64,000 bases of DNA from Selenobaculum gibii (lineage in GTDB: Bacteria > Bacillota > Negativicutes > ICN-92133): contig NZ_CP120678.1 in NCBI RefSeq assembly GCF_030273445.1, positions 1,093,501 to 1,157,500 on the forward strand. The letters run 5' to 3'. A program made the position numbers and the translations under genes. Under the pieces are notes generated by a model. It did not search any database, was not told the origin of the DNA, and was given only the letters and a program-made list of their open reading frames with translations. Every line of letters begins with the position of its first letter. Position 1 is the first letter of the stretch. Of the stretch, positions 9,747-59,560 are shown one piece after another.

Positions 9747-9936
9747 AATTTCAACTTTATAAACAAGGCTGATTTAGATAAAGCTTTAGGCAGATGAGTA
9801 ATCCAGGGGCTTATGGGAACTTTATTCCCATCTGAAAGGATAGGGGGATTATAAGCGGAGAACCAAAATCTTCGATTTTGTGTGAATCGCTTATTTCGTT
9901 GGATGACCTCGTTAGCCAGCGGATAAAGTTGAAATT
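9747..9936 (+). repeat. Intergenic structured element, copy A (upstream of pyk)
   Basis: A 190-base element closed by a perfect 14-bp inverted repeat (9747-9760 with 9923-9936). Inside I can fold a helix GAGTAA/TTTATTC, a hairpin CCCATC/GATAGGG, a helix ATAAGCG/CGCTTAT that holds the inner hairpin CAAAATC/GATTTTG, and a last helix CGTTGG/CCAGCG. The 77 bases at 9851-9927 match 58444-58520 at about 70 positions. The right arm ends 27 bases before the pyk start, so it is very likely in the pyk 5' leader. There is no ORF in it and no T-run after it. It could be a structured RNA, a regulatory leader or a small mobile repeat. Confidence 0.7.
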
Positions 9937-25406: not shown

Positions 25407-25424
25407 ATGAAAAACGATATAGCA

Positions 25425-25519
25425 CCTTTAATTTTAGTCCTGTGAGGCTAGGAAGGAAGCTGGTTTATTTGTCTGGAATAGTTAGCTTTCTTATGCCTGC
25501 GCATAGGAAAGCTTTTTTT
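25425..25519 (+). promoter_or_regulatory. PyrR-type attenuator 1
   Basis: The PyrR-binding hairpin consensus is present at 25425-25456 (core AGTCCTGTGAGGCTAGGAA). It is followed by a terminator with a 13-bp stem, AGCTTTC...GAAAGCT (25484-25513), and a run of T. When UMP is high, PyrR should hold the binding loop and let the terminator form. The element has the normal order binding loop, antiterminator, terminator. Confidence 0.82.
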
Positions 25520-44005: not shown

Positions 44006-44121
44006 TGTGATTATCTTTAAAATAATGTTTTTTTTTGTTATAATCAATAAGATATAATGTTGGATTTTGTATCATTTTTATAATGTAAGACTTAACTCAA
44101 GGGAAGATTTAGATTGTGCGC

Positions 44122-44250
44122 ATTTATTTAAAGATTAGTTGCCCTTAACTCTAATTATAGAAAAAGCAATTTGTGAAGTAACGCAGTGAAATCTTTGATT
44201 TTGTATGAGTCGCTTACTTTTGTTAGATGAATAGTAATCATCGAATAAAT
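44122..44250 (+). repeat. Intergenic structured element, copy C (shorter and diverged)
   Basis: A 129-base relative of the elements at 9747-9936 and 58328-58523. The conserved 3' part is recognisable (GAAATCTTTGATTTTGTATG, then CGCTTAC and GATGA...CGAATAAA at 44176-44250). The outer stem ATTTATT (44122-44128) with AATAAAT (44244-44250) is kept with different bases, and AAGTAA/TTACTT replaces ATAAGC/GCTTAT. The 5' half is shorter than in the other copies, and one 3' helix differs (GATGA/TCATC). It ends 166 bases before mltG. Confidence 0.5.
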
Positions 44251-51489: not shown

Positions 51490-51750
51490 AAAATTATATT
51501 GTAAAAGTAATGATGAGGACATGGTATCAATGTAATTGTTTTCAGAGAGAGATGTGAAAGCTGTGAGCATTTTATTCAATTGTTGATATTACTACCTTTG
51601 AACTGTAGGCTGAAATAGTAGTAAGCTAAGCCGGGGAATACCCCGTTATCTAAATGAAGGTGGATAGGTACTTTATTATCTATCAATCAGGGTGGAATCG
51701 CGAAGTATAATAACCTCGTCCCTTTATGGGGATGAGGTTTTTTTATTTTT
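51490..51750 (+). promoter_or_regulatory. T-box leader of thrS
   Basis: The T-box sequence AGGGTGGAATCGCG is at 51689-51702. It is followed by a terminator with stem AACCTCGTCCC/GGGATGAGGTT (about 51712-51738) and a T-run. The specifier region reads ACTACC at 51591-51596, both Thr codons. Uncharged tRNA-Thr should pair here and open the terminator. Confidence 0.92.
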
Positions 51751-53711: not shown

Positions 53712-53838
53712 TGAGTTAAATACGTGTGAAGTAGAAGCCATCCGCTTCTCACCTTATGGCGCTTAGTCAATAAGGTAAGATGAATTATTAATATTTATTA
53801 TTGTAATTTACGGGTGGCGTGTGCTGCCCGTTTTTATT
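53712..53838 (+). promoter_or_regulatory. infC-rpmI-rplT leader (L20-type autoregulation)
   Basis: The leader has hairpins AGAAGC/GCTTCT (53733-53749) and ACCTTAT/ATAAGGT (53751-53776) followed by a terminator ACGGGTGGC/GCTGCCCGT (53810-53831) and TTTTATTTT. In low-GC Firmicutes ribosomal protein L20 binds such leaders and causes termination. The layout fits, though I cannot test the L20-binding fold. Confidence 0.78.
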
Positions 53839-53876
53839 TTGTATGTATACACAATTTTTTTAGGAGGTGAATCTCA

Positions 53877-58085: not shown

Positions 58086-58327
58086 GATAATATGGTTTTA
58101 GACGATGAAGGAGAAAGTAAGCTGATTTTGATTTTTCAGGGAGATTATTGCCGTGACTGGAAGCATAATCATATCAATTCGTTGAAAGTTCGCTCTGGAG
58201 TTTTTCTGGTGAAATAAACATGTGTTGTTTAAGTAGTTGGAACGTTTGCCGCGTTAAGGTTTTGAGTATCAATTAGGGTGGTACCGCGAAAGTAAACTTT
58301 CGCCCCTTTACAGGGGTGGGAGTTTTT

Positions 58328-58334
<7 letters not shown>
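58086..58334 (+). promoter_or_regulatory. T-box leader of pheST
   Basis: The T-box sequence AGGGTGGTACCGCG is at 58275-58288. A terminator with stem AACTTTCGCCCC (58295-58306) and GGGGTGGGAGTT (58313-58324) and a T-run follows. A TTC (Phe codon) at 58189-58191 sits where the specifier is expected, on the 3' side of stem I. The gap 58055-58537 holds this T-box and then the repeat copy B. Confidence 0.88.

Positions 58335-59560
<1,226 letters not shown>

What the first reader, a model, noticed from the sequence alone, without database searches (positions are those of the whole stretch)
9747..9936. Repeated intergenic element with conserved RNA-like folding, three copies in 64 kb
Seen directly: copies at 9747-9936, 44122-44250 and 58328-58523 lie on the same strand, upstream of pyk, mltG and pheS. 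The 77-base 3' blocks of the first and third copies agree at about 70 positions (hand count). Helices are kept where bases differ: CGTTGG/CCAGCG against CGATAG/CCATCG, GAGTAA/TTTATTC against AAGTAA/TTACTT, CCCATC/GATAGGG against CCGCT/AGCGG. Outer arms pair in every copy but have unrelated sequence (14, 7 and 8 bp). This is what a structured RNA would show. I do not recognise it as any riboswitch I know. Other options are a guide-RNA-like relic of an IS200/IS605-type element (HEARO/OMEGA RNA) or a MITE.
Basis: partly seen in the sequence, partly recalled or inferred. Interest (0 to 1): 0.78.

Follow-up and report, generated by a model that had tools for sequence, protein, structure and literature searches.

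The report
Mobile hairpin repeat of anaerobic Firmicutes
The three copies belong to a large, apparently undescribed family of short non-coding jumping DNA elements (about 130 bp, up to 150 or more copies per genome in Clostridia and Negativicutes) that insert at the five-base site ATAAA; they are not a riboswitch or guide RNA, and their paired arms look like signals for moving DNA rather than for a folded RNA.

Summary
The repeat is real, but it is a mobile DNA element rather than a regulatory RNA. The window holds three copies (9759-9927, 44080-44249, 58340-58520). A covariance model finds about 60-65 places in the 2.68 Mb chromosome, and matches in 47 of 200 sampled genomes of the class. Named genomes carry 5 to 150 or more copies (Desulfosporosinus, Haloimpatiens, Alkaliphilus, Tindallia, Pelosinus). 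The core is about 132 bp with two strong hairpins, bounded by ATAAA on both sides (TTTAT on the other strand). Mobility is shown by two filled/empty-site comparisons: a Na+/solute symporter gene interrupted at AATTTATGC, where joining the flanks at one TTTAT restores a full SSF protein, and metG of one Pelosinus genome filled while four relatives are empty. Helices are kept by complete two-sided changes. G.U pairs are hardly commoner than A.C mismatches (51:40, against 26:2 in tRNAs), which points to DNA hairpins. Rfam, OMEGA/HEARO, REP/RAYT and plasmid/phage searches are negative. The mobilising enzyme is not identified; a Y1/HUH transposase is the best guess. Closest known kind: the TTTAT-flanked bcr1-3 repeats of Bacillus cereus. 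A separate hairpin module inside the window copies also occurs in a 5S rRNA gene and in tRNA spacers.

The parts
9759..9927 (+). Copy 1 (subfamily A), ATAAA to ATAAA, between dnaE (plus a short gene) and pyk; hairpin 1 is partly deleted
   Evidence: R1 covariance model match, full model 1-132; sequence
9747..9758 (.). Left part of the palindromic insertion site of copy 1; its partner is 9928-9936. Without the element the site reads AATTTCAACTTTATAAAGTTGAAATT, a perfect 26-bp palindrome. Exceptional, not a family feature
   Evidence: sequence; flank test over 125 copies at chance level
9852..9893 (+). Extra hairpin module H in copy 1: TAAGCGGAGAACC...GTGTGAATCGCTTA
44080..44249 (+). Copy 2 (subfamily B, decayed), ATAAT...ATAAA, upstream of mltG
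   Evidence: sequence; BLAST match of its H part to the L019 query at G000:C1:1137689; left end by comparison with L019
44176..44216 (+). Decayed H module of copy 2
   Evidence: sequence, match
58340..58520 (+). Copy 3 (subfamily A, best preserved), between the T-box leader terminator and the ribosome-binding site of pheS
   Evidence: R1 match, 61.2 bits; T-box 58096-58310
58353..58382 (+). Hairpin 1 of copy 3, TTTCAGTAGGAGTTTTAACTCCCACTGAAA
   Evidence: sequence; consensus hairpin
58445..58486 (+). Extra hairpin module H of copy 3, TAAGCAAAGAACC...GTGTGAATCGCTTA; missing in sister copies such as L073

Best explanation
A non-autonomous mobile DNA repeat of the MITE kind, but without terminal inverted repeats. 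SHOWN: a core of about 132 bp with a 30-40 nt hairpin near the left end and a long branched hairpin up to the right end; it is found inserted at ATAAA (TTTAT on the other strand) and leaves one ATAAA at each junction; tandem copies share a single ATAAA; closely related genomes differ by clean presence or absence. INFERRED: the two hairpins are recognised as single-stranded DNA by a transposase supplied in trans, which cuts next to TTTAT and joins the element behind another TTTAT, as IS200/IS605-type Y1 (HUH) transposases do (about 0.45 for Y1; about 0.9 for mobile DNA in general). Window copies 1-3 are old insertions in 5' leaders or intergenic gaps; any effect on pyk, mltG or pheS would be a side effect, such as a long RNA hairpin before the start codon. 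Subfamilies grow by taking extra hairpin modules (H here) into their loops or arms.
For: Copy number and spread: 71 model matches in the own genome, 47 of 200 class genomes, 5 to 150 per named genome, named Clostridia and Negativicutes by pattern. Sharp ends: ATAAA exact in 112 of 126 left and 106 of 126 right ends. Empty sites: L186 SSF gene rejoined at one TTTAT gives a 477-aa protein matching PF00474 positions 2-406 of 406; the metG 3' end is filled in G005 and empty in G023, G055, G065 and G070. Tandem copies share one ATAAA (L144, L222, L189, L071). DNA-type constraint: one stem has nine different, perfectly complementary 7-bp versions among lineages; G.U 51 against A.C 40 in 49 non-redundant copies, tRNA control 26 against 2. 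TTTAT is a documented target of IS605-type IStrons (PMC4227781). Y1 transposase genes occur in 43 of 47 element-bearing and 75 of 153 element-free class genomes (Fisher 6e-8).
Against: No copy with an internal transposase gene was found, and known Y1 genes do not carry the element's ends. The lagging-strand orientation expected of IS200/IS605 is weak in G000 (38 of 59, p 0.04) and absent in G005 and G033, if the contigs start at the origin.
Confidence: 0.85

Rival explanations
1. A cis-regulatory or trans-acting structured RNA family (riboswitch-like leader) that happens to be repeated.
For: Stable folds; compensatory changes in 16 of 34 pairs; the window copies lie in 5' leaders on the coding strand.
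Against: Rfam negative; gene context random, including a gene interior and gene 3' ends; presence/absence among close relatives; G.U not clearly preferred over A.C.
Confidence: 0.04
2. A relic guide RNA of an IS200/IS605 or IscB element (OMEGA/HEARO RNA).
For: IS605-type elements can use TTTAT (PMC4227781); the element has hairpins near its ends.
Against: No TnpB (PF07282) in G000, G005 or G033, no RRXRR match in seven genomes (weak as the query rang nowhere); no Rfam HEARO or IS605-orfB hit; no gene between the ends of any copy examined.
Confidence: 0.03
3. A REP/REPIN family moved by the RAYT genes present in these genomes.
For: RAYT-like Y1 proteins of about 250-290 aa occur in many element-bearing genomes; G005 has one RAYT and no other Y1 match.
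Against: No element in the 1.5-kb flanks of intact RAYT genes; the core is 132 bp rather than a 20-40 bp palindrome and no GTAG/CGTC tag is seen at the hairpin foot; G187 has the element in 16 or more copies with IS200-type Y1 only.
Confidence: 0.15
4. A mobile repeat moved by a non-Y1 enzyme or by a replication/recombination process acting at TTTAT.
For: G175 has many copies and no Y1 match; no lagging-strand bias in G005 or G033; a 'site-specific recombination-like mechanism' was proposed for bcr elements (PMC6542083).
Against: No candidate enzyme; Y1 genes are enriched in element-bearing genomes.
Confidence: 0.35

Closest known systems
bcr1-bcr3 repeats of the Bacillus cereus group (MITE-like, 147-167 bp, flanked by TTTAT)
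   Same: Similar size, high copy number, intergenic, conserved stem-loop structure, TTTAT at the ends, mobile-element behaviour, often within UTRs (PMC6542083; PMC3446304; PMC2267715).
   Different: bcr1 was reported as specific to the B. cereus group (cited in PMC6542083); this family spans Clostridia and Negativicutes. Sequence homology could not be tested because no bcr1 sequence was at hand; no match on PLSDB plasmids.
IS200/IS605-derived miniature elements and IStrons (Y1/HUH TnpA, T-rich pentanucleotide target)
   Same: Hairpins near both ends, insertion at TTTAT (IStron group A uses TTGAT, ATTAT or TTTAT: PMC4227781).
   Different: No autonomous element with the same ends found; no group I intron, no TnpB.
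REP/REPIN palindromes with RAYT transposases
   Same: Palindromic, extragenic, many copies; RAYT-like genes in many of the genomes.
   Different: Larger, no GTAG/CGTC tag, not next to RAYT genes.
ERIC, NEMIS/Correia, BOX and similar short interspersed hairpin repeats (from general knowledge)
   Same: About 100-200 bp, long hairpins, modular insertions, transcribed with neighbours.
   Different: Ends are direct ATAAA repeats, not TA-flanked inverted repeats; unrelated host groups.

Membership tests
bcr1-type B. cereus repeats | TTTAT at both ends | tested here: met
   ATAAA (reverse complement of TTTAT) at 112/126 left and 106/126 right ends
bcr1-type B. cereus repeats | sequence homology to the bcr1 consensus | not testable with these tools
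   no bcr1 sequence or B. cereus chromosome available; PLSDB plasmids gave no match
bcr1-type B. cereus repeats | presence/absence among close relatives | tested here: met
   metG site filled in G005, empty in four Pelosinus-genus genomes
IS200/IS605-derived MITE | ends shared with an autonomous TnpA-encoding element | tested here: not met
   no copy with an ORF between the ends; flanks of Y1 genes lack the ends
IS200/IS605-derived MITE | hairpins near both ends and a fixed short T-rich target | tested here: met
   target class documented in PMC4227781
IS200/IS605-derived MITE | orientation bias to the lagging-strand template | tested here: inconclusive
   38/59 in G000 (p 0.04), no bias in G005 and G033, origin position assumed
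Classical TIR-type MITE | terminal inverted repeats | tested here: not met
   ends are ATAAAG... and ...CGGATAAA, direct not inverted
REP/REPIN-RAYT | GTAG or CGTC tag at the foot of a 20-40 bp palindrome and linkage to a RAYT gene | tested here: not met
   consensus; no linkage
HEARO/OMEGA RNA | covariance-model match in Rfam | tested here: not met
HEARO/OMEGA RNA | associated TnpB nuclease in the genome | tested here: not met
   PF07282 absent from G000, G005 and G033, with working controls
HEARO/OMEGA RNA | associated IscB/IsrB nuclease in the genome | tested here: inconclusive
   PF14239 absent from seven genomes, but the query rang in no control genome
Structured regulatory RNA | helices tolerate G.U better than A.C on the transcribed strand | tested here: not met
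   51 G.U against 40 A.C; tRNA control 26 against 2
Structured regulatory RNA | conserved gene context | tested here: not met
   pyk, mltG, pheS, metG 3' end, inside an SSF gene

The most novel reading that the evidence does not exclude
A mobile hairpin system with a mobiliser unlike known Y1 pairs: a TTTAT-targeted family that spreads across classes of Firmicutes without any fixed Y1 partner, evolves by swapping nested hairpin modules in and out of its loops, and shares one of those modules (H) with insertions in 5S rRNA genes and tRNA spacers, so that one hairpin family may move between rRNA, tRNA operons and mobile repeats.
Probability: 0.15. Interest if true: 0.72.

Novelty: new member of a known kind. 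Interest (0 to 1): 0.42.

Why it matters
It turns a supposed riboswitch-like RNA into one of the more abundant short mobile repeats of anaerobic Firmicutes, with a defined target and ends, so that automated RNA discovery in these genomes can mask it. Because near-identical copies sit in cultured species such as Pelosinus fermentans and Syntrophomonas wolfei, the unanswered question for TTTAT repeats (which enzyme moves them) can be tested. The perfect two-sided helix changes with few G.U intermediates are also a worked example of covariation that does not prove an RNA function.

Tried and rejected
Rfam with gathering and permissive thresholds: nothing. The apparent link of an IS200-like gene to the element in G000 (L082): a chance neighbour, since that IS has its own unrelated hairpin ends. 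L212, a short element next to Y1-like coding sequence: an insertion into a decayed RAYT gene. Autonomous copies: H1-to-right-end distances of 260-4500 bp gave four cases, all unrelated genes or decay. Plasmids and phages: no match. Outer arms: chance. Orientation relative to replication: no consistent bias. Literature search for the element's sequence strings: none in the held library; papers on REP families and stem-loop repeats do not name it. A census of Clostridia as a class could not be run, so the spread there rests on named pattern hits and 12 genomes.

Full report
OBSERVATION. With natural ends they are 9759-9927, 44080-44249 and 58340-58520, upstream of pyk, mltG and pheS, whose identities Pfam confirms. 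BLAST of copy 1 found 18 matches in the own genome, and a second subfamily query (L019) found 39. A covariance model (R1) built from 23 diverse copies gives 71 matches at E up to 1e-3 in the 2.68-Mb chromosome, roughly 60-65 separate places because the palindromic parts sometimes match on both strands.

ENDS AND ANATOMY. In relatives the basic form is about 132 bp: ATAAA-GAAGACTT-hairpin 1 (GATTCAGATGGAGTTTTAACTCCATCTGAATC)-TTAGTCGCAC-hairpin 2 (TTATCCAGGGACTTAGCCGCTCT...CTCCC...GGGAG...AGAGCGGTTTAGTCATCGGATAA)-A. ATAAA is exact at 112 of 126 left ends and 106 of 126 right ends; on the other strand this reads TTTAT. Tandem copies share one ATAAA (L144, L222, L189, L071). The ends are direct, not inverted, so it is not a classical inverted-repeat MITE.

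MOBILITY. Two kinds of empty site were seen. (i) In a Tindallia genome (L186) a copy interrupts a sodium:solute symporter gene; the filled site reads CAGCGAATTTAT[element]TTTATGCAGG, and joining the flanks with one TTTAT restores a 477-aa frame that covers the Pfam SSF profile from 2 to 406 of 406. (ii) A copy of the long subfamily lies at the stop codon of metG in the Pelosinus-genus genome G005, and also in its closest relative G043 (two matching halves about 220 bp apart), while G070, G023, G055 and G065 have the uninterrupted sequence GTGAAATAAGATTACATAA. Several copies sit at gene ends where ATAAA overlaps a TAA stop codon.

SPREAD. 47 of 200 genomes sampled across the class have R1 matches. 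A pattern scan of named genomes hit Desulfosporosinus, Alkaliphilus, Haloimpatiens, Clostridium, Syntrophomonas, Tindallia, Anaerovibrio, Pelosinus fermentans JBW45 and Sporomusa ovata among others. Copies per genome (150 candidates scored at most): Haloimpatiens lingqiaonensis 150, Desulfosporosinus sp. PR 148, Alkaliphilus pronyensis 113, Tindallia sp. 86, P. fermentans JBW45 49, Syntrophomonas wolfei subsp. methylbutyratica 29, S. ovata 8, Clostridium ganghwense 5. No matches on PLSDB plasmids or phage records.

RNA OR DNA? The consensus fold has 34 pairs, 16 with two-sided changes, and one 7-bp stem exists in nine perfectly complementary versions among the lineages checked. If an RNA were the selected form, G.U pairs should be tolerated and A.C mismatches not. 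In 49 non-redundant copies the counts are 51 G.U and 40 A.C; in tRNA stems from the same loci they are 26 and 2. The copies were aligned to a model that itself favours G.U, and many copies are decaying, so drift blurs the test; but the lineage master sequences are Watson-Crick in that stem. I read this as selection on DNA hairpins during transposition. The pairing of flanks outside the element is at chance level in 125 copies.

MECHANISM. Shown: insertion at ATAAA/TTTAT with one copy of the pentamer at each junction, and two hairpins near the ends. Inferred: an enzyme in trans recognises the hairpins on single-stranded DNA and cuts beside TTTAT. The best candidate class is Y1/HUH transposases: IS605-type IStrons insert downstream of TTGAT, ATTAT or TTTAT (PMC4227781), and Y1 genes occur in 43 of 47 element-bearing against 75 of 153 element-free genomes. 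Against this: genome size and relatedness confound the association; G175 has at least 16 copies and no Y1 match; G005 has only a RAYT-type gene and G187 only IS200-type genes; no autonomous copy was found; and the lagging-strand bias expected of IS200/IS605 is weak or absent. I hold the Y1 step at about 0.45.

KNOWN FAMILIES. The closest described kind is the bcr1-3 repeats of the B. cereus group: 147-167 bp, MITE-like, TTTAT at the ends, conserved stem-loops, often in UTRs (PMC6542083; PMC3446304; PMC2267715). Homology could not be tested, so I do not file it as a bcr1 member. Rfam, HEARO/OMEGA and REP/RAYT membership fail on tested features (for IscB the PF14239 query is uninformative as it rang in no control genome).

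MODULES. The best conserved part of the window copies is an extra hairpin, H (TAAGCRRAGAACC-stem-GTGTGAATCGCTTA), missing from sister copies in the same genome (L073, L026, L029, L030). An H-like hairpin sits at another place in L223. H also occurs between tRNA genes (L056, L062, L066) and inside a 5S rRNA gene, where Rfam aligns the 5S model across an insertion of about 60 nt (L052 1439-1606). How H moves is unknown.

VERDICT. Real, mobile, widespread and apparently unnamed in the papers that could be searched, but of a known kind.

Noticed in passing
L052:1439-1606 (minus strand), H at 1501-1542: A 5S rRNA gene of a related genome (G039) carries hairpin module H as an internal insertion; a second, uninterrupted 5S gene lies at 1817-1933 of the same locus. 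Rfam scores the interrupted one at 29 bits (gathering score 38).
   Followed up: partly
L056:1501-1543, L062:1501-1543, L066:1501-1543: Hairpin module H stands alone in tRNA spacers, next to the 3' end of tRNA-Glu(TTC), in two genomes.
   Followed up: partly
L257-L267 (G005) and L067: A long subfamily (about 230 bp) carries a further structured insert in the loop of hairpin 2. Of the 28 copies tallied in G005, 23 lie on the minus strand regardless of chromosome half (p 0.0009), and none lies between about 1.2 and 2.8 Mb.
   Followed up: partly
window 58096-58520: Copy 3 sits directly behind the terminator of the pheS T-box leader and about 10 bases before the pheS ribosome-binding site, adding about 180 nt to the leader.
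   Followed up: no
G175 (class sample): A genome with at least 16 element copies and no Y1_Tnp match, which argues against an obligatory Y1 mobiliser.
   Followed up: no
L133:3107-3294 and L194:2875-3066: Tindallia copies carry another hairpin insert with H-like architecture (AAGTAGATGGCCC...GGTGGCAGATACTT) at a third position of the element.
   Followed up: no
L022:1388-1701: A subfamily B copy overlaps the edge of a c-di-AMP (ydaO) riboswitch lying on the opposite strand.
   Followed up: no
window 25421-25519, 51501-51726, 53723-53845: Ordinary known leaders in the window: PyrR site, a T-box and an L20 leader.
   Followed up: no
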